Source: Bacteroidales bacterium (GTDB lineage: Bacteria > Bacteroidota > Bacteroidia > Bacteroidales > WCHB1-69). Taken from it: a stretch of DNA of 19,865 nucleotides. The stretch covers positions 1-19,865 of the forward strand of contig JAFPXF010000004.1 in the NCBI GenBank assembly GCA_017394765.1, written 5' to 3'. The translations under genes and the position numbers were made by a program. Position 1 is the first letter of the stretch; each line of letters starts with the position of its first letter. Positions 2 to 13,441 of the stretch are shown piece by piece. The notes under the pieces were generated by a model that saw only the letters and a program-made list of their open reading frames with translations, was not told where the DNA came from and made no database searches.

Positions 2-526
2 CCGGCCTCTTTCATGTTCGTGGCAGCCATGAATCCATGCCCGTGCGGTAACTACAACCATCCGACGATAACCTGCACCTGCAAGCCTTTTGAGGTACAG
101 AACTACTTGAACAAGGTCTCCGGCCCCTTAATGGACCGCATCGACCTCCATGTAGAGGTCATCCCAGTCTCGCACGCCGAGTTGGCGAGTAACCGGCCCG
201 TGGAGAGGAGTGCCGACATCCGCAAGCGGGTGGTGGCAGCGCGTGAGATTCAGAAGGCCCGTTTTGCGAACCATTACAATATCTTCTGCAACGCGCAGAT
301 GACGAGTTGCATGGTGCGCCAGTTCTGCGTCATCGACGAGGCGGGCCAGAAGGTGCTCAAGGACGCGATGGACCGCCTGGGTCTCTCCGCCCGCGCCTAC
401 GACAGAATTTTGAAGGTGGCCCGCACCATCGCCGATTTGGACGGCAGTCCCGGAATCGGGTTCGGCCACCTGAGCGAGGCCATCAATTTCCGGAGCCTGG
501 ATAGGGACAATTGGGGGAGAAAGTGA
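2..526 (+). CDS. comM: ComM/YifB family Mg-chelatase-like AAA+ ATPase, C-terminal part (5' truncated by window)
   Basis: The reading frame is open from the first bases of the window, so the start lies outside and only the last about 174 residues are visible. It begins in the signature P-A-S-F-M-F-V-A-A-M-N-P-C-P-C-G, typical of the ComM/YifB branch of magnesium-chelatase-like ATPases, followed by a second cysteine pair (T-C-T-C), a likely metal-binding knuckle. The rest matches the family's C-terminal helical domain: a conserved D-R-I-D-L-H stretch, then S-A-R-A-Y-D-R-I-L-K-V-A-R-T-I-A-D-L and a closing H-L-S-E-A-I-N-F-R. Family members are cytoplasmic hexameric helicases; in gamma-proteobacteria ComM promotes branch migration during natural transformation, and that role here is inference. 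The stop is at 524-526 and a palindrome array begins about 20 bp later. The internal ATG at 14 is not the start. Confidence 0.9.
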   Translation, partial: PASFMFVAAMNPCPCGNYNHPTITCTCKPFEVQNYLNKVSGPLMDRIDLHVEVIPVSHAELASNRPVERSADIRKRVVAAREIQKARFANHYNIFCNAQMTSCMVRQFCVIDEAGQKVLKDAMDRLGLSARAYDRILKVARTIADLDGSPGIGFGHLSEAINFRSLDRDNWGRK

Positions 527-546
527 AGATTGCATGTTCTGCTGTT

Positions 547-930
547 GCCCCTGACCGGGGCATTGTGTTGCCCCTAATCGGGGCGCGGTTTCGCCCCTAA
601 TCGGGGCGATGGGGGAACGTGCTGTTGATGGCCTTCTACCGAGCTTTTGCCCCTGACCGGGGCATTGTGTTGCCCCTAATCGGGGCATGGTTCCGCCCCT
701 GACCGGGGCGATAGGGGATAGCGTTGGCGATGGTCCTACCGAGCTTATGTCCCTGTCGGGACATATTGTTGGCCGTAACGAACGGCGGGGAACAGGACGG
801 CCGCGAATGGCCCCGGTAGGGGCCAAAGCTCGGTAGAGAAAATGGGCGTTTTTTCCGCATGGCCCCGGCAGGGGCCGAAGCTCGGTAGCAATGGCGGACG
901 GGGTGTGTGTTACGTCCCGGTTAGGGACGT
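547..930. repeat. Left palindrome array (about ten short GC-rich hairpins)
   Basis: I count ten palindromes, most with a 5-8 bp stem around a 4-5 nt loop: 547-561, 570-584, 593-607, 649-663, 672-686, 695-709, 746-765, 808-825, 861-876 and 912-930. The first six have GCCCC/GGGGC stems and loops TGACC or TAATC; the seventh is TATGTCCC/GGGACATA. The last three have loops GGTA, GGCA and GGTTA, so they read in the opposite orientation. The 11-mer CTACCGAGCTT lies next to forward units (636-646, 736-746) and its complement AAGCTCGGTAG next to reverse units (826-836, 878-888). A three-palindrome block repeats with a period of about 102 bp (547-611 against 649-713). No coding function is credible here; open frames across it are artefacts of the repeats. 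Confidence 0.9.
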
Positions 931-1007
931 GAGAAAGACATTGATTCAACAAAAATCAACATATAATATCAATCAAGACCATTTAATATTAATCAAAATC
1001 ATTAAAA

Positions 1008-1481
1008 ATGAAATCATTAAGAAACGACACCTACACGCAAATCCACATTCAATTGGTTTTTGCCGTTCAAAACAGGGAATCCATGATCCTCGAATCTTGG
1101 AGAGGGCGGCTGTACAAATACATAGCAGCCATCATACAGAACAACCGCCATAAGGTGCTGTCCATAGGTGGAACAGCGGATCACATTCACATTCTGATAG
1201 GGATGCGTCCCTCGCAGTCCCTTTCGGACTTGATACGAGATGTAAAAGGATGTTCGTCAAAATGGATCAATGAAAACGGGTTGTCAAATGGCTGGTTTTC
1301 ATGGCAGGAAGGTTATGGCGCATTCTCTTATGCTAAGGATGAATTGCCGGATGTCATCCGTTACATCGAGAATCAGGCCGAGCATCACAACCAGAAAAAC
1401 ATGGTAGATGAATACAAGGGTCTTCTGGAGGAACATGGTGTCGAATACGATGAACGGAATATTTTTAAGCCAATAGAATGA
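1008..1481 (+). CDS. tnpA: IS200-like / REP-associated Y1 (HUH) transposase, 157 aa
   Basis: A small, apparently intact Y1 transposase that would cut and rejoin single-stranded DNA at hairpins. The HUH motif is A-D-H-I-H-I-L with metal-binding H59 and H61. The C-terminal helix carries R-Y-I-E-N-Q; the spacing of Y119 and Q123 equals that of the catalytic tyrosine and third metal ligand in IS608 TnpA, so these are the likely catalytic residues. G-Y-G-A-F-S and the trailing E-H-H are common in the Bacteroidota versions. Length is normal for the family (about 150 aa). The ATG at 1008 follows an AT-rich leader with no clear ribosome-binding site. No tnpB is present, and GC-rich palindromes lie on both sides, favouring a RAYT-like role over an ordinary IS200 copy. 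It looks lower in GC than its neighbours, in keeping with mobile origin. Confidence 0.88.
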   Translation: MKSLRNDTYTQIHIQLVFAVQNRESMILESWRGRLYKYIAAIIQNNRHKVLSIGGTADHIHILIGMRPSQSLSDLIRDVKGCSSKWINENGLSNGWFSWQEGYGAFSYAKDELPDVIRYIENQAEHHNQKNMVDEYKGLLEEHGVEYDERNIFKPIE

Positions 1482-1499
1482 TTTATCGTTTGTCTGAAA

Positions 1500-1870
1500 T
1501 CCCTAATCGGGGCATGGTTCCGCCCCTGACCGGGTCGATGGGGGAACGTGCTGTTGATGACCTTCTACCGAGCTTTTGCCCCTGTCGGGACCATTGTGTT
1601 GCCCCTAATCGGGGCACGGTTTCGCCCCTGACCGGGGCGATAGGGGATAGCGTTGGCGATGGTCCTACCGAGCTTATGTCCCTGTCGGGACATATTGTTG
1701 GCCGTAACGAACGGCGGGGAACAGGACGGCCGCGAATGGCCCCGGTAGGGGCCAAAGCTTGGTAGAAACGCATGCTCACGGGTGTGTCCAGGCCCCGGCA
1801 GGGGCCGAAGCTCGGTAGAGAAAACGAGAACGTCTTCCGCAGGGCCCCGGCAGGGGCTGAAGCTCGGTGG
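1500..1870. repeat. Right palindrome array (about nine hairpins)
   Basis: This array starts 18 bp after the transposase stop, inside a palindrome: the 5' arm of the first hairpin (1501-1514) has lost its outermost bases. The next two hairpins (around 1522-1536 and 1578-1592) are imperfect, while those at about 1599-1613, 1624-1638, 1675-1694, 1737-1754, 1792-1805 and 1844-1856 are good or nearly so. CTACCGAGCTT occurs forward at 1565-1575 and 1665-1675, and in reverse at 1755-1765 (one change), 1808-1818 and 1860-1870 (one change, ending GG). The segment 1501-1765 duplicates 572-836. A second short duplication links 831-888 with 1813-1870. Confidence 0.9.
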
Positions 1871-2097
1871 ACCGACCCGAGACAAAAAAAATCAGCAAAT
1901 GGCAGGAGACCATCAACAGGAAGAACTCGAAGCTGCGCGTGAGGGTGGAACATGTGTTTGGGTACATGGAAGAGTGCCTTCACGGAATGTCCAGCTGTGT
2001 GGTCGGCTTTGCGCGGAACGCGGCCTACAACACCCTGACAAACCTGGTCTACAACCTGTGCCGGTACGAGCAAGTTATGCAACTCGGGATGAATTAA
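1871..2097 (+). pseudogene. IS5-like DDE transposase, C-terminal remnant
   Basis: About 75 codons of a DDE transposase survive. The R-V-R-V-E-H-V-F-G segment has the R-x3-E spacing around the third catalytic acidic residue that is typical of IS5-type enzymes. It is followed by the usual end N-A-A-Y-N-T-L-T-N-L-V-Y-N-L-C-R-Y-E-Q. The N-terminal and central domains carrying the two catalytic aspartates are absent, and sequence upstream of the remnant is palindrome array, so it cannot be functional. A GTG at 1867 keeps the frame open but lies in the last repeat unit. Either the array was inserted into, or it replaced, the 5' part of the insertion sequence. Subgroup within IS5 is uncertain, and I could not identify a terminal inverted repeat downstream. 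Confidence 0.8.
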
Positions 2098-2196: not shown

Positions 2197-2305
2197 CAGC
2201 GTCATATTTTCAGATTTTGTTCAACGGACCTCGCATGGTCTGGAGGTGCGGCGCGAAAATGGTAAAAATGGAGGTCCCCTTAAGAATAACCAATACAATA
2301 AGATA

Positions 2306-5300
2306 ATGAAGAAACTCGTCTCATTATTCGCAATTCTGGCGACCGTGGTGTCTGGAGTGACCGCGCAAACCCTCACCGTGGCTGGTGGCAACACGGCTAC
2401 CGACAGATACATTCCCGTATATGGCTACTATATGGATGTGCCGCAGAAATCACACGTGCTGTATCCCGCCAATTTGCTGACCGACATGGTGGGCTCGCAC
2501 ATTACTGGGCTGACCTACTACTTTTCCTCATTGCCTTCCGGCGCATGGGGAGGAACACAGATGGTCCGAATGGGCATCACCACCTCATCCAACCTGCAAA
2601 ACGGCTATGACAACGCATCGGTCACGACGGTTTGGACCGGCACATTGTCGAGTTGCATTTCAGGGTCAACCATGGTGATCACGCTGGATGAGCCGTTTCC
2701 ATATACTGGTGGAAACTTGCTGATTGAATTCGAGAACCCCACAGCAGCGACGTGGAAAGACTCCTATTTCTACGGGGCAAACCAGACCGCCCAACTCTCC
2801 TACATGACCTATACTACATCTGTTTCGACATATACACACGGGGCAGCATTCCTGCCTCAAACCACTTTTGCCTACGAAAGCGGCTGTTTCGCGCCCATCC
2901 ACACATACGCGAATAACATAAGCGTAGATACTGTGCTGTTGACATGGAATACCAATCCCATCCTGCCTGCCTCGTCCTATACGGTGGCTTACATGAAAGT
3001 TCCCGACACCGTTTTCACAGAGGTGGCGGTTACGGATACTTTCCTGACTCTGACTGGACTTCAGATTTCTACCGATTACGAATGGAAAGTGCGCTCCCAC
3101 TGCGACACTGCCGGAATGAGCGATTGGAGTACGGTCAATACGTTCACGACGCTGCAACACCCTGCAATTCTGCCATATCAGTGCGGTTTTGAAGATAACG
3201 CCGAGAACTTGGAATGGGGTTTCGCTCAAAACGCCGCCAATCAGTGGCATATTGGAGAGGCCGTGGCACGGAACGGCGAGGCATCTCTCTACATCTCCAA
3301 TGACGGCGGTGAAAACAATGCCTATACAAATACCCAATCATCTGTGGCTTGGGCATACCGCGACATCCAACTTCCTGCTGGACAGGCACAATACCAAATC
3401 TCCTTCGATTTCAAAGGTATGGGACAAAACGGCCAGGACTATGTCAAGGTGTTCTTGGGAACACAAACCACCCCTTCAAGTTCCGCAGCACCAGCAGGGG
3501 CAACACAGTTGGGCGATGCCCTAAGAATGGTTTACGCATGGCAGCACTTTAGTTTTACGGTGGACGCCTCCTTCGCAGGAAACCAGCGGCTCTATTTCCT
3601 GTGGGTGAACAACGGTGCTGACGGGACAAATCCGCCCGCTGCCATCGACAACATCCGCGTGGAGGCTTCGGATTGTGCCGTTCCCGCTGAGCTAACCCTC
3701 CTTTCAGTGACCGACTCTTCAGCCACTGTGTCATGGAACGCCGTTCCGGGCGCAACCGCAGGATACGAGGTGGCCTACCATTTAGATTCGGACAGTAACT
3801 ATCTGACGGTGACGACCATGGACACGTTCTGCGTGTTGCCGGCGTTGCAATCGGCCAGCGACTACCTATGGATGGTGAGGGCACGGTGTTCGGCCACGAG
3901 CCAAAGTGCCTGGTGTTCGGAATCCTATTTCCACACCCCCATCGCCATCGCTCAAGTCCCCTATTTCTGCGGATTTGAGGACGCTGTCGAGAACAACAAC
4001 TGGCAGTATGTCAATGGTACCAATTCAGACAGATGGTGTATCGGGACCGCAGCTTTTACAGAGGGAGAGACGGGACTCTATATCTCCAACGACAATGGCG
4101 AACACAACAAATACACTATGCTCAATTCCTTTACAGCGTGGGCCTACCGCGATATCTATATCGATTCCACCGCCACCGACGTGTTACTCTCTTTTGACTA
4201 TCGTAACGCGCTCGTCCCAGCAAACTCTGCCAAAGTGTTTATGGGTCCACCTACCACGCCTTCTGGAAACAGCGTTCCACAAAACGCCGTGCAGCTTGGC
4301 AACTCGTTGTCAACCAGCATTAATGAATGGAAACGTGCCAATTTCCTTTTAGATTCCACACAACGAGGACTGCAACGGCTCTATTTCCTATTCTACTATA
4401 GTGCCAATTCCTACTATTCTGACAACCAACCCCTTGCAATTGACAATCTATCCGTTGAGGCTTCCCACTGTATCTACCCCTTTGAGAGGTCTGTGGCATC
4501 GGTGGACAGTACCACGGCTTTACTTATATGGTCGCTTCCGCAAATTGGACAACCGAGTAGCTATACTGTAGCATACAAACAGCAGGACGAGACGGATTTC
4601 ACCACAGTTACGGTCACTGACACGTTTGTGTTGCTCACCGGATTGGAATACTCCACCCCATACGTATGGAAAATACGCAGCAATTGCAGTCCTACGGAGA
4701 TAGGCGAATGGAGTCCCGAAAAGAATTTCTTATCGGCTCAGATTATCGTTCCGCTACCTTACTGCTGTGATTTCGAAGATTCCCTTGAAAACAGCCAATG
4801 GCAATTCATCACCCAAGACACAAACACGCAATGGTATATAGGACAAGCTGTTAATAACGGCGGCACCTCGGCACTGTATGTTTCAGGAGCAGACGGAACA
4901 ACTACTTCCTGCTCTCATCCCGACTACGCAGGCGTTAATGCATTAGTCTATCGTGACATCTATTTCCCTGAAGCCACCGAATATCTGATTTCATTTGATG
5001 TTAAGGAAAGTCGTTGTGAAAACACAGGTTTGAGATTTATTGTCGGTCAGCCCACTCTCAATGAATCGATTGATTATAATAGCGGCATTCCGACCGGATC
5101 CAGTTTCACTTATAATTTCAGAAACCACTATTATGATGTGCCTGACACCACTTGGCAACATCACGATCTTATTATGAATTCCTCATACGTGGGTGTGCAA
5201 CGACTCTATTTCAGTTGGTATCATAATGGCATTTATCCATGCTCTCCCACTGCGGCAGTGGATAACTTCTGCGTGTCATCGAACAACTGTGGTCGTCCAA

Positions 5301-8300
5301 GCGCATTAAATCAGCTTACGGTAACGGACACCTTGGCCGAACTCAGCTGGCATCCTTTCAACAACCAAACGGCTGAATCTTATACTGTTGCCTATCGGGA
5401 AGAGACGGATACCCTTTTCACAGAGGTTGTGGTTACAGATACGACCTGCATTATCGGCGGGTTACAGCCTCTCACTGGATATGTTTGGAAAGTCCGTGCC
5501 AACTGCTCTGGTTCAGAGTCTAGCTTCTGGAGCAATGAGGAGTATTTCTATACGGAACAGCTACATGTAGAACTGCCGTACTTCTGTGATTTTGAGGATG
5601 CTGTGGAAAACAGCAACTGGCAGTTTTATCAAAACTACGGTGCAGGCTACAACCAAGCCTGGATTGGCGATGCGGTCGCCTGCGGCGAAGGACACTCCTT
5701 GTATATCACGAATGACAACGGAGTCACCAACAGTTACCTTTCTCGCATGTATGCTCCTGAAGCTTTCCGATACATCTATTTTACTCCCAGCTACCCGAAA
5801 TATCAGATTTCTTTCGACTGCAAGGGCGGTGGTAGTATGCAGGGATTTTTGCAGGTGCTTTTGGACGGAACACCGATAAGCGGCTACTTGAGCGATGCTG
5901 ATTTCTGGACTCGCCACAGTATCGTGGTGGATTCATCATACGCAGGTTTGCACCTGTTAACGCTGAAGTTCGACTACAACACCACTTGGAATCCAGCCGG
6001 TGCTTTTGACAATATTTCTATCAAGGGTGTTTCCCATGAAACGCCTGTTGGACTGTCCACTACAGACATCACCGCTCATACGGCACATTTGTCATGGACC
6101 TCCGACTCTTCCGAAACTTCACTTTCCTATCGTTTGGCATGGCGTGCACAGTCAGATACAACATACACGGAAATCCTGTTATCTGCTTCAGATTCGGCAT
6201 ACCTTCTCTCCAACTTGGAAGCCTCCTCCTGGTACGTTTGGAAAGTAAAGGCTTTGTATGCCGGCGGTGAATGGAGTGAATGGAGCGGCGAAAAAGCTTT
6301 CCAGACCTTGGCTCGACTCCCATATTTCTGTGATTTTGAAGATAATACGGAGAGTAAAAACTGGACTATCCGCAATGGCGACTATTATTTCACCACTGGA
6401 GGTTCTTCCGGGTATTACTCGGCGTCTCAAAACAAGTGGTTTATAGGAACCCCTTCCGATGTTGCTGACAATCAGCTGTTGTTCATTTCGACCGATGATG
6501 GAATCACCAATAGTTACTCACTAAATAGGCAGTCATTCGTCTGGGCTTTCCGAGACATTTATTTGGAACCCGGTTATTCCCAATATCAGCTTTCGTTGGA
6601 TTTCAAGGGTGTTGGCGAGGCCGGACAAGATTATGTAAGAATCTATTTAGACACCCCTGAGGAACCGTCTCATGACCGAAATGCAGCCGTTACGCTCACC
6701 CAAATCGGGGAGGATTTGAACCTGACCGACCAATGGATGCATAAATGTTTCACCGTGGATTCCACCCATGCGGGCGCACAACGGCTCTACATCTTGTGGA
6801 ACAACAACTATAATTCCGGCGCCAACCCGCCAGCCGCCATCGACAATATCTCCATTAAGGTAGCAACTTGCGGAGTGCCCGACAACATGGTCTCTTATCC
6901 GCAAGACACCTCAGCCACACTCTCATGGTCGAGTGGAAGCGCAGGTGTCGCATCTTCTTATGTGTTGGCCTACAAGATGTTGTATGATTCGGTTTATACG
7001 GTATTAACCACTCAAGACACGTCACTTACAATACAAGGACTTATTCCGAATACTGATTATATTTGGCATGTGAAGTCCCTCTGCAGTGCTTCGGACACCA
7101 GCGAATGGAGCAGTGACGCACTCTTCACCACCACGCAAACGCTGCCGCATTTGCCGTATTTGTGTTCATTCGACAATTCTACGGAGAACAGTCATTGGGC
7201 GATAGTGAACGGCAGTTCCGAAAACCAGTGGGTGATCGGCAACGCCATTGGATATGATGACAACCACGCCCTCTATATCTCCAATGACGGTGGCACAACG
7301 AATGCTTATACCATCACCTCTACATCCTCCGTGTGGGCATACCGCGATGTCTTCTTCGATAACGGCTATACCGAGTACCAGTTGTCTTTCGATTTCAAGG
7401 GCGTGGGACAAGGCAACAACGACTATATGAAGGTGTTTGTGGGAAGTCCCGCTGTCCCGTCCGGCACAACAACACCCGCCGGCGCAATGCAACTGGGCAC
7501 TGCCATATCCTCTGTCAACGACTGGACACACTACGCGTTCACCCTCGACTCCACTTACTCCGGAGTGCAACGGATCTATTTCCTGTGGGTTAATAACAAC
7601 TCTATCGGGGTGCAACCGCCTGCCGCTGTGGATAACCTCACCGTGGTCGGTTCAGACTGTGCCATACCGTCTGAATTAGTGTTAACCGGCATGACCAACC
7701 ACACGGTTGCTTTGGCATGGACCCCCGCATCTGACAATCCGGTCTCCTATACCGTGAGCATGCGACAAGCAGGAAGCACCGCGACCTCCGAATACACGAC
7801 CACGGACACTTTCTTGACCGTAAGCGGACTCACCCCGTCCGCCGCCTACTTCTGCAAAGTGCGCGCCAACTGCTCCGCCAACGACCATAGTGGATGGTCC
7901 AGCGACCTCAGCGTCCAGATGCCTGCGGCTTTGCCCTACATCTGTGACTTTGAAGATGCCAACGAGCGCAATGCCTGGCAGTTCGTGAATGGGACCTATA
8001 ACAACCAATGGTATATTGGCAACGCGGTCAGCTTAAGCGGGGACTATTCCTTGTATATATCGAACAATGGAGGTGTAACTTACGCATACTCTTACCCTTA
8101 TAACAGTTCTTACGTATGGGCATACCGGGATATCTATTTCGACCCGTCCGATTCCGTCTATACTCTTTCCTTTGACATGCGAGGGGTGGGAGGAACCAGT
8201 TACCAAATTTCAGCTTACACCAATGTTTACATCGGAAGTCCTGCCACACCTAACGGCACCGCCACGCCTGCCGGGGCCACCGAACTGGAAAACGGTCTTT

Positions 8301-11300
8301 GCGGAATGTCGGCATGGACGACCAAGACCTACACGATTGATTATTCCCACGCCGGTCTGCAGCGTCTCTATTTCTTCTGGCGTAACGCAGGCTACACTGT
8401 CGCTAATCCACCGGCCGCCATCGACAACATCGCCATTGATGGTACACCCTGTAACCATGTCCCGTCCAACCTGACAGCACAGGCCATGGACACGTTGGCC
8501 AATCTGTCGTGGACCTTGCCAGGAGGCAGTTCTGTTTATTACACTATAGCGTATAAGTCGCAGACAGATACCAATTTCTCCTATATCACCACCCAAGACG
8601 AACATATTACTTTGGGTAATCTCACCCCAACGACCATCTACATCTGGAAAGTCCGGGCGCACTGCACCACCACTGACTTTAGCAATTGGTCATCGGAGTC
8701 CACTTTCCAAACCACCGTGACTGTCGCACATATCCCTTACCAAGGCGGTTTTGAAGACCCGTCAGAAAACGCTAACTGGATGATTGTAAACAGCACTTAT
8801 ACAAACCAATGGTTTATCGGGAATGCTGTCAACAATGGTGGAAACAATGCGCTTTACGTTTCCAATAATAATGGCGTTTCGAACACCTACACAATGAACA
8901 CCGAATCTTACGTTTGGGCTTACCGAGACTTCTACTTTACTCCGAACTATCAGGATTATCTTATTTCGTTTGATATTCGCAGTTTCGGGGAATTGTACAG
9001 CAACATTCCGTATGATTACGTCAAAGTGTTTTTAGGTCCGCCCGCTATACCTGCATATAATAACATTCCGTCTGGTGCCACGCAGCTGGGTTCGGAGTAT
9101 TTGAATGATTCCATCTGGCATACAGAAACATTTACGGTGAATTCCTCCAATGCGGGATATCAGCGTCTATATTTCCTGTGGAGAAACGACGGTTCTTACG
9201 GTACTAACCCGCCCGGTGCAATTGACAATATCTCCATTACGCCTGTCGGATGCGGCACACCCCGCTGTCTGACAGTCAGCCAAATGTGGGAGGATTCCGC
9301 AGAACTCTCCTGGCCGGCAATTTACCAGGCCGATTCCTACACGGCGGCCTATCGCCGTGCATCCGACAGTACTTACAGTTACGTGATGACCACCGATAAC
9401 CATATTTTGTTGACCAACTTGTTGCCCATGACCAACTATCTGGTAAAAGTCAGAACCGATTGTGACACTTCGCAAGGTGCATGGAGCGACGAGTTTCAAT
9501 TCAGCACGACTGCTTTGCCCTATTTCTGCGGATTTGAAGAGGCGGGTGAGAATGCATGTTGGACACTGGATGGCGGCATGAACAACCACAAATGGTACAT
9601 CGGCCATGCGGTGCACTGCGACGGCGATTCAGCCCTGTACGTCTCCAATAACAACGGTGTTTCCAACACATTCTCCGATAATGTGAATGCCCAAATCTGG
9701 GCTTACCGCGACATTTACTTCAATCCGCAATATTCCGAATATCTGATGGAATTCGACATCCGCTCTTACGGTTATCCCGGAGCGTCTGTGGACTATGTAA
9801 GAGTGTTCCTCGGACCGCCGGCAACGCCTTCCGGCAGTTACACCCCCGCCAACGCAGAAGTCATCGGCGACTTCTATGGTATGACGAACTGGAACCATTT
9901 CCGCTTCGTAATCAACGGATCCCATGCCGGTATGCAACGTCTATACTTCCTGTGGAGACAGCAGGTTGCAGGAACAAACAACCCACTTGCCGGTGCCGTG
10001 GATAACATCTCCATCGTCGGTTCGCCATGCAGCATCCCGACGGAACTGACCGTTTCCGACCTTGCCGATGTCACGGCAGTGGTCTCCTGGAGCCCCGGCG
10101 CGTGCGGCATCACCAACGGCTACACGGTCGGCTACCGGATGAGCAGCGATACGGGATGGTACGAGCTTTCCACTACCGACACGTTCCTCTTGCTGCAGAA
10201 TTTGCAGTCCTCCACGCAATACACTTGGCGGGTGCGCAAAAGCTGTGTGCCGTCATTCGCCAGCCAGTGGAGCGATGTGAGCACTTTCTTCACGGAAGCC
10301 ACCGAAGCGCAGCTGCCCTATTTCTGCGGCTTTGAAGAGAGTGACGAGAACCGCGACTGGCGTCTGTTGGGTGTGAGCACCAACCGATGGTATATCGGGC
10401 AGGCCGCGCAACAGGCAGGCCAATACGCCCTCTATGTCTCCAACGACAACGGCGCTACCAACGCCTATGACGTTTACGGCTCAATGACTAATTCCTGGGC
10501 TTATCGCGACATCTATTTTACCCCCGGTTACTCAGAATACCAGATAGCCTTTGATTTCCGAGGTCTTGGACAGAGCGGCGATGACCGTACCCGCATCTTC
10601 CTCGGTCCTCCCACCCAAGTGGAGCCTAACGGTACTTACTCTATCACTATCCCTTCCGAATTGGAAGAACTCGGCAACGGTCTGAATACGGATGCCGTAT
10701 GGACCAGCCATTCCTTTACGGTCGATTCCACTCATGCCGGGCACCAGCGCCTCTACTTCCTCTGGTGCAATGGTTTCTATGAAGGGACGAACCCGCCAGG
10801 CGCAGTTGATAACATTATGGTTTATGGCGGAACCTGCGCCGCACCTCACGACCTGACGGTGACCGCGACCTCCACGACCAGCATCAGCATCAGCTTCACC
10901 CCCGCCGACACCAGCGACCAGAATTGGGAGGCCGTCATCGTGGAAGACGGACAACCTATTGACACCACGCAGGTTGTTGCGCTGACAGGCGCCGCCTATA
11001 ACTTCAATAACCTTCACAAGGACAGACTTTACGTCATCTATGTGCGCACCAACTGCGGGGACAGCCAGAGTGCATGGTGTTCCACTTCCCAGAGAACGGA
11101 TTGCGGCACCATTACCGATATTCCTTATTTGGAATCCTTTGACACCTACGGCACCGGTTCCAACTTGGACGGCTATTCCGCATTCCCGAGATGCTGGAGT
11201 CGCCTCTGCTCCTCCTATATCGTCGCACCTTATCCGTTTATTTTCCCCAATGGATATTACAGCTCACCGGGTTCGCTCTATTTCCAACCCAGCAACGGCC

Positions 11301-13441
11301 ACAACGTCGCCATCACGCCCGAATTTGATTCGTCTATCCCGATGAACACTTTGCAGGCATCGTTCAAGTTCAAAGCCAATACGACAGCCCCCAACTCCAT
11401 ATTGGTGGTGGGTGTGATGACCGATCCTAACGACTTCGCCACGTTCACGCCTGTTGACACGGTCTTCTCGAATCCTTACGCGCTGACATCTTGGATTGAC
11501 AGGACCGTCAGTTTGGCCTCCTATACCGGCAACGGTCACTACCTCGCTTTTATGCAGGAGAACTTCTCCAATCCGCTCACACCGGTCAGCATGGACAATC
11601 TGACGGTGGATTACCTCTCCGCTTGTCCGCTGCCAACGAATGTGACCGCTGAACCCATCACCCACGACAGCGTGTTGGTGGATTGGCAGCCCGGCGGGTC
11701 AGAGACCGCTTGGCGCGTGGTGGTCGTCCCCAACGGCAATGCACCTGAGAACGGCACGCTTGTGCAGACGGGAACCCATCCGATCGTTATCGGCGACTTG
11801 GCCGACAACACGATGTATGATGTCTTCGTGCAGTCCGATTGCGGCAGCTCGAGCAGCTCGTGGTGTACCCCCGCCACCTTCATGACAACTTGCGCCCCCG
11901 TGGTGGATCTGCCCTACTCGGAGAATTTCGACGACTACACGTGGATGAGCTCCTATATTGTGAGACCCGACTGCTGGATCTTCCCCGTGACATACGCCGA
12001 TTACCCCAGAATCGATTGGAACACTTACGGGTATTACGGTATGGAGAGCAAGGCGCTGCTCTTCCACTCCGACACGTCAACGACCGCCACCGCGGTCACC
12101 CAGCCGTTCGGAGTGGACATCCACTCGCTGCGGGCGCAGTTCCGGTTGTCCGCCGACCATGAATATATTGCCGGCTGTATGGAAGTGGGCGTGATGAGCG
12201 ACCCGTACGACCTTTCTACCTTCGAATCCGTGCAGGTGTTCTCCATCGCCCATTATGACACTTGGCAGGATGTCACGGTGGATTTCCGCAACACGGCGAT
12301 GACGGGCACCAACCGCCATATCGCCTTCCGGCAAGTGGGATTACACTCCTCTAATATGGCTATGTGGCTTGACGATCTGATTGTCTATCAAGCAGACGAT
12401 TGCGATGCACCCTCCGCTTTGACTGCCCATGACCTCACCTCCACCTCGGCTACGATCTCGTTCGAGCCCTCGCATAGTAGTGCTTCACAATGGGAATATG
12501 TGGCCTGCGCCCCGGGAGTTTCTCCCAATACCCAAACCCCGGTGGCCACCGCCAACACCTCGTTTGTCGTTGACAACCTGACTCCCGGACAAACGTACCG
12601 CATATTCGTGCGGACTGTCTGTGGCTCGAACAGCCATTCGGGATGGTCAGAGCCGTTAGAAATCACCCCGGACTGTGGAATTATCAGCCAATTGCCCTAC
12701 ACGGAGACGTTTGACACTTACGGAACAGACAGTGAAACGGCCTTCCCCGATTGTTGGCGCCGCATTCTGACCCCTGCATCCTACTCTTACTATCCCATCG
12801 TTTCGTCTGAAGTTTCCGCCAGCGGTGTCGGGTCGATGCTCTTCCTCGCCAATTCCTTCAGCGATGATTGGGCCATCACCCCGGCATTCGCCCCGAATCT
12901 CTCCTTTGATAGCATCCAGCTGGATTTCAGCTGCTTTCAGGAAGCTGGTGCGGTTCCGGGTTGGGACACGATGTTCATCGGCGTGATGAGCAGTCCTTAC
13001 GATGCCGCCTCCTTCGTGCCGGTCGATACCATCACCCTCCAGAGCTGGGGCGTGTGGGAACCGCATTCCGTACTCCTTGACCACTACTACGGCGACGGAC
13101 GGTATGTGGCGTTCCGCTACCACTGCCCCGCCTATTTGGGCAAGGTGTTCATCGACGACGTGGTATTTTCTGTAAGACCTGATGTCGGGATTCCCGAACA
13201 TAACCTGAACCAACTTTTGCATCTCTATCCCAATCCCACAAACGGAAAATGCACTATCCGCAGCGAGGAATACGCCATTGAGAATGTGGAGGTGTATGAT
13301 GTGTTCGGTAAACGGTTAGAGCAGCACTTTGCGCGTGATTACCAAATGGTTATAGATCTCTCCACCCGTGCCGCCGGTGTCTATTTTGTGCGTGTGACCA
13401 CCGAACAGGGCACCGTCACCAAACGGGTGGTGAAACGGTAG
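2306..13441 (+). CDS. Giant modular adhesin-like protein, type IX secretion substrate, 3711 aa
   Basis: A predicted outer-surface or secreted protein of about 400 kDa. The chosen ATG opens a clean signal peptide (M-K-K-L-V-S-L-F-A-I-L then A-T-V-V-S-G-V-T-A-Q, cleavage near residue 20); an in-frame GTG at 2246 would bury it behind 20 polar residues. Residues about 21-210 form an N-terminal domain. Thirteen fibronectin-III/jelly-roll pairs follow, with jelly rolls beginning at residues about 295, 557, 823, 1096, 1344, 1622, 1882, 2149, 2410, 2676, 2945, 3208 and 3469. The first ten open with Y-x-C-x-F-E-D-x-x-E-N and contain W-x-I-G, L-Y-I-S-N-D, W-A-Y-R-D-I-Y-F, Q-R-L-Y-F-L-W and P-P-A-A-I-D-N-I. 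The last three open with P-Y-x-E-x-F-D and carry F-P-x-C-W, like the cleaved-adhesin/choice-of-anchor-J family of gingipain haemagglutinins. The tail from L-Y-P-N-P (3640) to K-R-V-V-K-R is a type A sorting domain. Adhesion is inferred from domains; the ligand is unknown. Confidence 0.92.
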   Translation: MKKLVSLFAILATVVSGVTAQTLTVAGGNTATDRYIPVYGYYMDVPQKSHVLYPANLLTDMVGSHITGLTYYFSSLPSGAWGGTQMVRMGITTSSNLQNGYDNASVTTVWTGTLSSCISGSTMVITLDEPFPYTGGNLLIEFENPTAATWKDSYFYGANQTAQLSYMTYTTSVSTYTHGAAFLPQTTFAYESGCFAPIHTYANNISVDTVLLTWNTNPILPASSYTVAYMKVPDTVFTEVAVTDTFLTLTGLQISTDYEWKVRSHCDTAGMSDWSTVNTFTTLQHPAILPYQCGFEDNAENLEWGFAQNAANQWHIGEAVARNGEASLYISNDGGENNAYTNTQSSVAWAYRDIQLPAGQAQYQISFDFKGMGQNGQDYVKVFLGTQTTPSSSAAPAGATQLGDALRMVYAWQHFSFTVDASFAGNQRLYFLWVNNGADGTNPPAAIDNIRVEASDCAVPAELTLLSVTDSSATVSWNAVPGATAGYEVAYHLDSDSNYLTVTTMDTFCVLPALQSASDYLWMVRARCSATSQSAWCSESYFHTPIAIAQVPYFCGFEDAVENNNWQYVNGTNSDRWCIGTAAFTEGETGLYISNDNGEHNKYTMLNSFTAWAYRDIYIDSTATDVLLSFDYRNALVPANSAKVFMGPPTTPSGNSVPQNAVQLGNSLSTSINEWKRANFLLDSTQRGLQRLYFLFYYSANSYYSDNQPLAIDNLSVEASHCIYPFERSVASVDSTTALLIWSLPQIGQPSSYTVAYKQQDETDFTTVTVTDTFVLLTGLEYSTPYVWKIRSNCSPTEIGEWSPEKNFLSAQIIVPLPYCCDFEDSLENSQWQFITQDTNTQWYIGQAVNNGGTSALYVSGADGTTTSCSHPDYAGVNALVYRDIYFPEATEYLISFDVKESRCENTGLRFIVGQPTLNESIDYNSGIPTGSSFTYNFRNHYYDVPDTTWQHHDLIMNSSYVGVQRLYFSWYHNGIYPCSPTAAVDNFCVSSNNCGRPSALNQLTVTDTLAELSWHPFNNQTAESYTVAYREETDTLFTEVVVTDTTCIIGGLQPLTGYVWKVRANCSGSESSFWSNEEYFYTEQLHVELPYFCDFEDAVENSNWQFYQNYGAGYNQAWIGDAVACGEGHSLYITNDNGVTNSYLSRMYAPEAFRYIYFTPSYPKYQISFDCKGGGSMQGFLQVLLDGTPISGYLSDADFWTRHSIVVDSSYAGLHLLTLKFDYNTTWNPAGAFDNISIKGVSHETPVGLSTTDITAHTAHLSWTSDSSETSLSYRLAWRAQSDTTYTEILLSASDSAYLLSNLEASSWYVWKVKALYAGGEWSEWSGEKAFQTLARLPYFCDFEDNTESKNWTIRNGDYYFTTGGSSGYYSASQNKWFIGTPSDVADNQLLFISTDDGITNSYSLNRQSFVWAFRDIYLEPGYSQYQLSLDFKGVGEAGQDYVRIYLDTPEEPSHDRNAAVTLTQIGEDLNLTDQWMHKCFTVDSTHAGAQRLYILWNNNYNSGANPPAAIDNISIKVATCGVPDNMVSYPQDTSATLSWSSGSAGVASSYVLAYKMLYDSVYTVLTTQDTSLTIQGLIPNTDYIWHVKSLCSASDTSEWSSDALFTTTQTLPHLPYLCSFDNSTENSHWAIVNGSSENQWVIGNAIGYDDNHALYISNDGGTTNAYTITSTSSVWAYRDVFFDNGYTEYQLSFDFKGVGQGNNDYMKVFVGSPAVPSGTTTPAGAMQLGTAISSVNDWTHYAFTLDSTYSGVQRIYFLWVNNNSIGVQPPAAVDNLTVVGSDCAIPSELVLTGMTNHTVALAWTPASDNPVSYTVSMRQAGSTATSEYTTTDTFLTVSGLTPSAAYFCKVRANCSANDHSGWSSDLSVQMPAALPYICDFEDANERNAWQFVNGTYNNQWYIGNAVSLSGDYSLYISNNGGVTYAYSYPYNSSYVWAYRDIYFDPSDSVYTLSFDMRGVGGTSYQISAYTNVYIGSPATPNGTATPAGATELENGLCGMSAWTTKTYTIDYSHAGLQRLYFFWRNAGYTVANPPAAIDNIAIDGTPCNHVPSNLTAQAMDTLANLSWTLPGGSSVYYTIAYKSQTDTNFSYITTQDEHITLGNLTPTTIYIWKVRAHCTTTDFSNWSSESTFQTTVTVAHIPYQGGFEDPSENANWMIVNSTYTNQWFIGNAVNNGGNNALYVSNNNGVSNTYTMNTESYVWAYRDFYFTPNYQDYLISFDIRSFGELYSNIPYDYVKVFLGPPAIPAYNNIPSGATQLGSEYLNDSIWHTETFTVNSSNAGYQRLYFLWRNDGSYGTNPPGAIDNISITPVGCGTPRCLTVSQMWEDSAELSWPAIYQADSYTAAYRRASDSTYSYVMTTDNHILLTNLLPMTNYLVKVRTDCDTSQGAWSDEFQFSTTALPYFCGFEEAGENACWTLDGGMNNHKWYIGHAVHCDGDSALYVSNNNGVSNTFSDNVNAQIWAYRDIYFNPQYSEYLMEFDIRSYGYPGASVDYVRVFLGPPATPSGSYTPANAEVIGDFYGMTNWNHFRFVINGSHAGMQRLYFLWRQQVAGTNNPLAGAVDNISIVGSPCSIPTELTVSDLADVTAVVSWSPGACGITNGYTVGYRMSSDTGWYELSTTDTFLLLQNLQSSTQYTWRVRKSCVPSFASQWSDVSTFFTEATEAQLPYFCGFEESDENRDWRLLGVSTNRWYIGQAAQQAGQYALYVSNDNGATNAYDVYGSMTNSWAYRDIYFTPGYSEYQIAFDFRGLGQSGDDRTRIFLGPPTQVEPNGTYSITIPSELEELGNGLNTDAVWTSHSFTVDSTHAGHQRLYFLWCNGFYEGTNPPGAVDNIMVYGGTCAAPHDLTVTATSTTSISISFTPADTSDQNWEAVIVEDGQPIDTTQVVALTGAAYNFNNLHKDRLYVIYVRTNCGDSQSAWCSTSQRTDCGTITDIPYLESFDTYGTGSNLDGYSAFPRCWSRLCSSYIVAPYPFIFPNGYYSSPGSLYFQPSNGHNVAITPEFDSSIPMNTLQASFKFKANTTAPNSILVVGVMTDPNDFATFTPVDTVFSNPYALTSWIDRTVSLASYTGNGHYLAFMQENFSNPLTPVSMDNLTVDYLSACPLPTNVTAEPITHDSVLVDWQPGGSETAWRVVVVPNGNAPENGTLVQTGTHPIVIGDLADNTMYDVFVQSDCGSSSSSWCTPATFMTTCAPVVDLPYSENFDDYTWMSSYIVRPDCWIFPVTYADYPRIDWNTYGYYGMESKALLFHSDTSTTATAVTQPFGVDIHSLRAQFRLSADHEYIAGCMEVGVMSDPYDLSTFESVQVFSIAHYDTWQDVTVDFRNTAMTGTNRHIAFRQVGLHSSNMAMWLDDLIVYQADDCDAPSALTAHDLTSTSATISFEPSHSSASQWEYVACAPGVSPNTQTPVATANTSFVVDNLTPGQTYRIFVRTVCGSNSHSGWSEPLEITPDCGIISQLPYTETFDTYGTDSETAFPDCWRRILTPASYSYYPIVSSEVSASGVGSMLFLANSFSDDWAITPAFAPNLSFDSIQLDFSCFQEAGAVPGWDTMFIGVMSSPYDAASFVPVDTITLQSWGVWEPHSVLLDHYYGDGRYVAFRYHCPAYLGKVFIDDVVFSVRPDVGIPEHNLNQLLHLYPNPTNGKCTIRSEEYAIENVEVYDVFGKRLEQHFARDYQMVIDLSTRAAGVYFVRVTTEQGTVTKRVVKR

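What the first reader, a model, noticed from the sequence alone, without database searches (positions are those of the whole stretch)
547..1870. A REP/RAYT-like system in a Bacteroidales chromosome
A stand-alone Y1 transposase (HUH at H59/H61, likely catalytic Y119 with Q123) is bracketed by about nineteen short GC-rich palindromes in two arrays, with unit orientation readable from loop sequence and the CTACCGAGCTT tag. This matches the logic of REP-associated transposases and BIMEs, best studied in gamma-proteobacteria. The palindrome family (GCCCC-loop-GGGGC) may be a Bacteroidales REP class with its own processing enzyme.
Basis: partly seen in the sequence, partly recalled or inferred. Interest (0 to 1): 0.75.

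Follow-up and report, generated by a model that had tools for sequence, protein, structure and literature searches.

The report
Tagged hairpins with their own enzyme
A small DNA-cutting enzyme of a Bacteroidales-type bacterium sits between arrays of short tagged DNA hairpins, and its closest relatives carry the same hairpins scattered between genes, so this looks like a separately evolved version of the enzyme-plus-repeat partnership known from E. coli and Pseudomonas.

Summary
Confirmed: a Y1 (HUH) transposase (1008-1481) lies between two arrays with 19 hairpins, nine of them with a CTACC tag. Its motifs are those of TnpA-Y1 subclass 1.2, listed as having no REPs in the survey that described it (PMC6006769). 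In 78 of 81 loci of its kin, CTACC-tagged hairpins flank the gene (232 seen, about 3 expected), with one polarity and fixed spacing. Of 40 more distant paralogues in such genomes, 3 have the tag. Model hits per genome: 7-81 in the eight closest relatives, 0-4 in ten genomes where the gene was not found. In one relative, 20 of 20 sampled copies are intergenic and start sharply at the tag; at five of six sites no compared relative has a tagged unit. The close gene copy is single and beside yifB in seven of eight relatives. It works like a REP/RAYT system but is not a canonical RAYT: class 1 enzyme, CTACC some 5-8 nt before the hairpin instead of GTAG at its foot. Cleavage and mobilisation are inferred. 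The window's own genome is not held.

The parts
1008..1481 (+). Y1 (HUH) transposase/nuclease, 157 aa, subclass 1.2 signature (ADHIH, SWQ, YIENQAEHH, C-terminal extension)
   Evidence: Pfam Y1_Tnp 3.3e-25; NCBIfam IS200/IS605 65.4 bits over cut-off 55, REP_Tyr_transpos 24.7 bits under cut-off 80; invariant columns; AlphaFold2 mean pLDDT 81.6, best Foldseek matches ISDra2 and IS608 TnpA
546..930 (.). Upstream hairpin array: 11 hairpins, four of them tagged, one untagged hairpin (912-930) nearest the gene
1501..1870 (.). Downstream hairpin array: 8 hairpins by the strict rule; five tagged units by the covariance model
636..664 (+). Tagged unit CTACC-N7-hairpin
   Evidence: model hit 38.9 bits
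736..763 (+). Tagged unit CTACC-hairpin
   Evidence: 46.2 bits
809..836 (-). Tagged unit (hairpin-GGTAG on the + strand)
   Evidence: 48.3 bits
861..888 (-). Tagged unit
   Evidence: 47.6 bits
1565..1592 (+). Tagged unit (stem slightly degraded)
   Evidence: 33.7 bits
1665..1692 (+). Tagged unit
   Evidence: 46.2 bits
1738..1765 (-). Tagged unit
   Evidence: 46.4 bits
1791..1818 (-). Tagged unit
   Evidence: 47.6 bits
1843..1870 (-). Tagged unit (tag reads CTACC only with a changed base: ...GCTCGGTGG on +)
   Evidence: 34.9 bits; sequence
572..837 (+). First copy of a 266-nt direct repeat that makes the two arrays near-duplicates
1501..1766 (+). Second copy of the 266-nt direct repeat, 95% identical
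14..526 (+). C-terminal part of yifB (Mg-chelatase-like ATPase), cut by the window start; the landmark next to which the gene also sits in L001-L007
   Evidence: Pfam/NCBIfam; synteny by tblastn

Best explanation
This is a REP/RAYT-like partnership built on a class 1 (subclass 1.2) Y1 nuclease. A gene kept as one close copy at a steady chromosomal place encodes an HUH endonuclease; its DNA partners are short units made of a CTACC tag followed 5-8 nt later by a small G+C-rich hairpin. When the DNA is single-stranded (for instance on the lagging strand) the unit folds, the enzyme dimer binds the hairpin and cuts at or next to the tag with Y119, and strand transfer moves or duplicates the unit; insertion next to existing tags would build the ~52-nt-period arrays beside the gene, and insertion elsewhere gives the solitary intergenic copies. 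SHOWN here: the anatomy, its conservation with the gene clade, polarity and spacing, dispersal in relatives, the sharp edge of solitary copies at the tag, presence/absence at matched sites, single close gene copy at a kept locus. INFERRED: binding, cutting at CTAC|C, ssDNA intermediates, and that this enzyme (not another) spreads the units.
For: Tagged hairpins within 600 nt of the gene: 105 CTACC-hairpin plus 127 hairpin-GGTAG = 232, against 3.0 expected from the far flanks, and only 8 of the opposite polarity; 78 of 81 loci have at least one. Tag-to-hairpin-centre distance is 14.5-15.5 nt in 228 of 239 units; the tag lies between two hairpins whose centres are 48-56 nt apart in 141 of 187 cases with a 5' neighbour. 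The trait follows the protein tree: 8 changes against a shuffled mean of 33.8, 0 of 500 shuffles as low, and unit sequence tracks protein distance (77 loci, Mantel r 0.51, 0 of 999 permutations). Dispersal: exact CTACCGAGCTT 13, 4, 10, 15, 16, 8, 2, 3 times in G001-G008 against 1, 3, 3, 1, 2, 1, 1, 0 for the reversed control; covariance model 29, 7, 45, 81, 65, 32, 17, 53 hits in G001-G008 against 4, 0, 0, 4, 0, 0, 0, 1 in ten control genomes, at most 150 candidates scored per genome. 20 of 20 sampled G004 copies are intergenic and conservation jumps from 0.28 bits at position -1 to 2.0 bits at the first C of CTACC. At five of six G004 sites no compared relative has a tagged unit. One close copy of the gene per relative, beside yifB in L001-L007. 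CTAC|C differs by one base from TTAC|C, the site at which about 70% of IS608 integrations were seen (PMC5934647, passages).
Against: No cleavage, binding or movement was observed. The window's own genome could not be searched. In G002 the four exact-tag hits all lie beside the gene. In 295 genomes of the order of G004, 4 of 25 with three or more strict-pattern copies had no homologue at E <= 1e-10, and 72 of 89 with a homologue at E < 1e-35 had fewer than three copies, so gene and strict pattern are associated (p = 5e-5) but loosely; the strict pattern covers only TCCC/GGGA stems. The richest genome, G363 (182 copies), carries most inspected copies inside a larger composite repeat whose ends include the inverted repeat AATGATTATCGGATG, so something else may have amplified that one; G039 copies too lie in a longer repeat. 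Matched-site alignments are too diverged to show clean junctions. The 'far' copies could spread by recombination or by another enzyme.
Confidence: 0.72

Rival explanations
1. The hairpins are ends of an IS200/IS605-type insertion sequence or its decayed relics, and the array is a pile-up of dead copies.
For: The protein is class 1 like IS200/IS605 transposases; its best structural matches are ISDra2 and IS608 TnpA; NCBIfam calls it IS200/IS605.
Against: One close copy per genome with next-best homologues at most 50% identical in G001-G008; same place beside yifB in seven of eight close relatives; hairpins lie in inverted arrays on both sides rather than as one left and one right end; dispersed units carry no gene.
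Confidence: 0.1
2. The units are RNA-level or DNA-level regulatory hairpins (attenuators, mRNA stabilisers, gyrase or nucleoid-protein sites) selected by the host, and the transposase is a neighbour without a causal part.
For: Copies in G004 lie in intergenic gaps, often a few bases after a stop codon, as many E. coli REPs do; E. coli-type REPs have such host roles (PMC3733652 abstract).
Against: Enrichment around this gene clade in 78 of 81 loci from several classes of Bacteroidota and near absence around 40 more distant paralogues in such genomes (3 of 40); absence at matched sites in close relatives. No Rfam family matched.
Confidence: 0.12
3. The units are passive passengers of other mobile or recombining repeats (composite repeats with terminal inverted repeats, slipped-strand expansion) and the Y1 enzyme only expands or trims arrays locally.
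For: G363 and G039 units sit in longer repeats; arrays have a ~52-nt period and the window's two arrays are 95% identical direct repeats; a paralogue's own hairpin type in G033 was found only beside its gene (7 of 7).
Against: In G004 the solitary unit has a sharp left edge exactly at the tag and no shared flank beyond it in 20 sampled copies.
Confidence: 0.2

Closest known systems
REP/BIME with TnpAREP (RAYT), E. coli and gamma-proteobacteria, class 2
   Same: Stand-alone Y1 enzyme in one close copy; gene flanked by inverted, tagged G+C-rich hairpins; solitary, paired and clustered units; mostly intergenic; tens of copies or more in relatives.
   Different: Class 1 signature Y---Q--HH instead of Y---NP (PMC6006769, sections seen); NCBIfam RAYT model far below cut-off; tag CTACC 5-8 nt before the hairpin instead of GT(A/G)G 0-2 nt before it; regular second hairpin on the other side of the tag.
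TnpA-Y1 subclass 1.2 (Quentin et al. 2018, PMC6006769)
   Same: DH[IV]H, WQ, Y---Q--HH, about 150 aa, C-terminal extension, low copy number, Bacteroidetes.
   Different: Reported there with REP 'no' and generally without typical terminal structures; here 78 of 81 loci have tagged hairpins.
IS608 / ISDra2 (IS200/IS605 family)
   Same: Closest solved folds; a tag one base away from IS608's TTAC|C preference (PMC5934647, passages).
   Different: Not multicopy, no left/right-end pair in one orientation around the gene; W-Q instead of W-[TS].
TIRtrons and CGTC repeats (Di Nocera et al. 2013, PMC3733652, passages and CGTC section)
   Same: Y1 genes with non-GTAG repeats; CGTC repeats were reported from Bacteroidetes among five phyla.
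   Different: CGTC repeats were reported without a transposase and with the tag at the stem; many hairpins here begin CGTC inside the stem, but whether any is a CGTC repeat was not tested.

Membership tests
TnpA-Y1 subclass 1.2 | HuH motif DH[IV]H | tested here: met
   ADHIH, D58 H59 H61
TnpA-Y1 subclass 1.2 | Tyrosine motif Y---Q--HH | tested here: met
   Y119 Q123 H126 H127 invariant in 22 proteins
TnpA-Y1 subclass 1.2 | WQ motif, length near 148 aa, C-terminal extension | tested here: met
   W99 Q100, 157 aa, extension after Y119 with helix 132-142
TnpA-Y1 subclass 1.2 | Placement by the authors' own profiles or tree | not tested
   Their profiles and reference sequences were not at hand
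TnpA-Y1 subclass 1.2 | Reported trait, not used to define the subclass: no REP sequences nearby | tested here: not met
   78 of 81 loci have CTACC-tagged hairpins
Canonical RAYT / TnpAREP (class 2) | Y---NP catalytic context | tested here: not met
   YIENQ
Canonical RAYT / TnpAREP (class 2) | NCBIfam REP-associated tyrosine transposase model above cut-off | tested here: not met
   24.7 bits, cut-off 80
Canonical RAYT / TnpAREP (class 2) | GT(A/G)G 0-2 nt 5' of the hairpin | tested here: not met
   GTAG or its complement within that distance at 7 hairpins of 581 near the gene; only GTAG, not GTGG, was counted
Canonical RAYT / TnpAREP (class 2) | Gene flanked by inverted REPs, one close copy | tested here: met
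REP sequences (20-50 nt palindromes, many dispersed intergenic copies) | Many dispersed, mainly extragenic copies in the genome | tested here: met
   In relatives, not in the window's genome; wider sample 30 intergenic, 9 in ORFs of 90-149 aa, 8 in ORFs of 150 aa or more
REP/RAYT system as a mechanism | Enzyme binds and cuts its single-stranded REP | not testable with these tools
   needs a bench assay
IS200/IS605 insertion sequence (subclass 1.1) | Several near-identical copies per genome | tested here: not met
   one close copy in each of G001-G008
IS200/IS605 insertion sequence (subclass 1.1) | W[TS] motif | tested here: not met
   WQ

The most novel reading that the evidence does not exclude
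Class 1 (IS200/IS605-like) Y1 transposases gave rise, independently of the class 2 RAYTs, to a whole set of REP systems in Bacteroidota: each subclass 1.2 lineage keeps its own tagged hairpin family, and in this lineage the mobile unit is a roughly 40-52-nt single-hairpin ssDNA transposon cut and inserted at CTAC|C, an IS608-like site, with tag-next-to-tag insertion building the 52-nt-period arrays.
Probability: 0.35. Interest if true: 0.87.

Novelty: new variant of a known kind. Interest (0 to 1): 0.72.

Why it matters
If right, taming a transposase into a keeper of short palindromes happened at least twice, from two branches of the Y1 family, and a subclass described as having no REPs has them. 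That gives an independent test of what REP systems are for, and a phylum rich in gut commensals in which to do it. The tag, hairpin and enzyme are small enough for a simple cutting assay.

Tried and rejected
Viral contigs: 53 stretches matched the patterns, none encodes a relative. Plasmids: 24 records matched, best 44% identity; phages: 3 records, best 24%. Rfam: only tRNA in the window. Looking for a guide sequence at the hairpin foot that pairs with the tag gave nothing consistent; GTAG occurs in the linker of 4 units. TCAA after the G004 hairpin equals IS608's right cleavage site, but conservation runs four bases further, so I make no claim. The first gapped alignment for a covariance model misplaced the 3' arm and was replaced by 14 units of equal length. 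A first site comparison shows the unit in G003 and G004 and not in G001, G005, G006, without clean junctions; the fetched G007 and G008 regions were not aligned. Single strict-pattern hits are at chance level: in the order of G044 8 of 148 genomes hit, with 8 hits of the reversed control; in the order of G004 no genome had more than 2 control hits. 'Each paralogue has its own tag' is by eye; what was counted is hairpin excess over shuffles: 137 against 23 for paralogues of 37-52% identity and 106 against 36 for 27-36%, far control 54 against 58. Row L051 was cut at 157 residues and is misplaced in the tree.

Full report
Observation. The window holds a 157-aa Y1 transposase ORF at 1008-1481 (Pfam Y1_Tnp) between two hairpin arrays. 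By a strict rule there are 11 hairpins in 540-930 and 8 in 1495-1870, against shuffle means of 2.4 and 2.2 and maxima of 6 and 5. Nine units carry the CTACC tag, four on + and five on -. The arrays share a 266-nt direct repeat, 95% identical. Upstream is the end of yifB (14-526); downstream, at 1867-2097, the C-terminal end of an IS5-type transposase. No whole genome is held for the window.

The enzyme. H59, H61, W99, Q100, Y119, Q123, H126 and H127 are invariant in 22 aligned homologues. The signature Y---Q--HH with WQ and a C-terminal extension is that given for TnpA-Y1 subclass 1.2 by Quentin et al. 2018 (PMC6006769; I read its sections 12, 17, 18, 25, 31 and 38 and passages). Their table says 'no' under REP for this subclass, and their automatic search required GTAG or GTGG 0-2 nt before a hairpin. 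The NCBIfam RAYT model scores 24.7 bits against a cut-off of 80. The AlphaFold2 model (mean pLDDT 81.6) is nearest to ISDra2 and IS608 TnpA; the E. coli RAYT structure 4er8 ranks 28th. I did not have the authors' profiles, so subclass membership rests on motifs.

Hairpins around relatives of the gene. Within 600 nt of the gene in these and the window, 581 hairpins were found; 105 have CTACC 5' and 127 have GGTAG 3', the same thing on the other strand. From the far flanks 3.0 would be expected; the opposite polarity occurs 8 times; 78 of 81 loci have at least one, the misses being L009, L064 and L075. GTAG or its complement in the canonical place occurs 7 times (GTGG not counted). The tag-to-centre distance is 14.5-15.5 nt in 228 of 239 units. 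The consensus is T-rich, then CTACC, R, A (93%), then the hairpin, mostly with loop TAC, TAAC, TGAC or TGC. Of 187 tagged hairpins with another hairpin on the tag side, 141 have it at 48-56 nt centre to centre, with 21-29 nt between that hairpin and the tag in nearly all of these. Arrays thus tend to a period near 52 nt. A common minimal layout is hairpin-GGTAG, gene, CTACC-hairpin.

Specificity. In genomes from the same set, 40 further Y1 genes, 27-52% identical, were fetched; 37 of them match Y---Q--HH by a simple pattern, and only 3 of 40 have a CTACC-tagged hairpin. Yet hairpins are in excess near them: 137 against 23 by shuffling for the 20 nearer ones, 106 against 36 for the 20 farther ones, with 54 against 58 in a far control. 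By eye each has its own hairpin type and neighbouring motif; one such type, in G033, occurs only beside its gene (7 of 7). On a tree of 121 rows the CTACC trait needs 8 changes, against 33.8 on average when shuffled, and unit sequences track protein distance, which co-inheritance of flank and gene would also give.

Copy number and place of the gene. In G001-G008 there is one copy at 73-87% identity; the next best is 50% in G003 and 40% or less in the others that have one. Some other genomes have two or three copies of 55-65% identity (G010, G022, G023, G026, G030, G051). yifB lies directly upstream in L001-L007 (in L001 only its last 35 residues are on the contig) and in the distant L052, not in L008.

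Dispersal. Exact CTACCGAGCTT: 13, 4, 10, 15, 16, 8, 2 and 3 hits in G001-G008, reversed control 1, 3, 3, 1, 2, 1, 1 and 0; in G002 all four hits lie beside the gene. A covariance model of 14 units of the window and its nearest relatives gives 29, 7, 45, 81, 65, 32, 17 and 53 hits at E <= 0.5, with at most 150 candidates scored per genome; the first ten listed genomes without a homologue give 4, 0, 0, 4, 0, 0, 0, 1, 0 and 0, best E 0.008. A strict pattern for one stem type hits 65 of 75 gene-bearing genomes with one control hit in all. In 295 genomes of the order of G004, three or more copies go with a homologue at E < 1e-35 in 17 of 25 genomes, against 72 of 270 others (p = 5e-5); 4 of the 25 have no homologue at E <= 1e-10 (I transferred the lists by hand). 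G363 has 182 copies and no control hit, but its inspected pairs lie in a larger composite repeat, many copies of which end in AATGATTATCGGATG inverted repeats.

Where copies lie. In a first sample from G001, G003-G006, G008, G023 and G039, 30 units are intergenic, 9 lie in ORFs of 90-149 aa and 8 in longer ORFs. For 20 of the 81 G004 model hits, chosen away from the gene, 20 of 20 are intergenic. Aligned, they show no shared sequence up to position -1 (0.28 bits), 2.0 bits from the first C of CTACC, strong conservation to position 37 and a weak T-rich tail to about 48. So the unit starts at the tag and is about 40-50 nt long, close to the array period.

Presence and absence. For six G004 sites the matching gap was read in relatives (17 regions fetched, 16 aligned; L250 ended at its contig end). 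At five sites no relative compared has a tagged unit, though at one of them G006 has an untagged hairpin; at the sixth (L230) G001 has the unit and G003 does not, while G006 aligns poorly. Another site has the unit in G003 and G004 and not in G001, G005 and G006. Gaps are too diverged for clean junctions.

Other amplified forms. Units also occur as a 40-nt double-tagged hairpin (G359), 74-nt pairs with tags outward (G371) and 54-nt pairs (G023), each flanked by further untagged hairpins at similar distance.

Mechanism. By established knowledge of Y1 enzymes (PMC6006769 section 31; PMC8266576 and PMC5934647, passages) these proteins cut folded single-stranded DNA. IS608 inserts 3' of TTAC and prefers a following C, about 70% TTAC|C. 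The invariant tag CTACC, sharp unit edge at the tag, one polarity and constant tag-hairpin distance fit a cut at or beside the tag, CTAC|C being my guess. E. coli-type RAYTs cut at C|T (PMC8266576, passages), which the tag also contains, so the exact cut is open. Cutting, transfer and mobilisation are inferred.

Known or not. Searches of the paper library showed no paper describing REPs with subclass 1.2 or CTACC-tagged hairpins; most subscription papers and preprints are not held. RepRanger (PMC12306157, passages) counts REP candidates in Bacteroidota species without naming RAYT. Nunvar et al. 2010 (PMC2817692, passages) found qualifying RAYTs only in gammaproteobacteria. I rate this a new variant of a known kind: it works like REP/RAYT, from another enzyme class and with another tag geometry.

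Noticed in passing
window 1867-2097: C-terminal remnant of an IS5-type DDE transposase right after the last tagged unit; the array seems to abut or interrupt a dead IS.
   Followed up: partly
window 2303-13441: Giant 3,712-aa secreted protein with many fibronectin type III repeats and a Por secretion tail; related proteins lie downstream in L004 and L005.
   Followed up: no
G363 (L142, L144, L151, L169-L177): Composite repeat with inverted ends AATGATTATCGGATG and four inner hairpins; possibly a MITE of another transposase carrying the tagged units.
   Followed up: partly
L006 7957-8091: A second copy of the last 45 residues of yifB about 1.5 kb after the transposase, suggesting a duplication around the element.
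   Followed up: no
L095 about 1515-1611 and many places in G001, G003, G004, G006: Intergenic AATAACC-type short-period repeat with some 40 BLAST matches per genome (capped list).
   Followed up: no
L033, L038, L069: Records titled Planctomycetaceae, Ignavibacteria and Desulfuromonadales carry the gene inside Bacteroidota clades; transfer or mis-binning.
   Followed up: no
L209-L227, L194, L199: Distant subclass 1.2 paralogues have their own hairpin types and neighbouring motifs, e.g. CATACTG with GCCTC hairpins in L216.
   Followed up: partly
L120 1443-1470: A 485-aa ORF ends exactly in the TAG of a unit's GGTAG, so the repeat supplies the stop codon.
   Followed up: no
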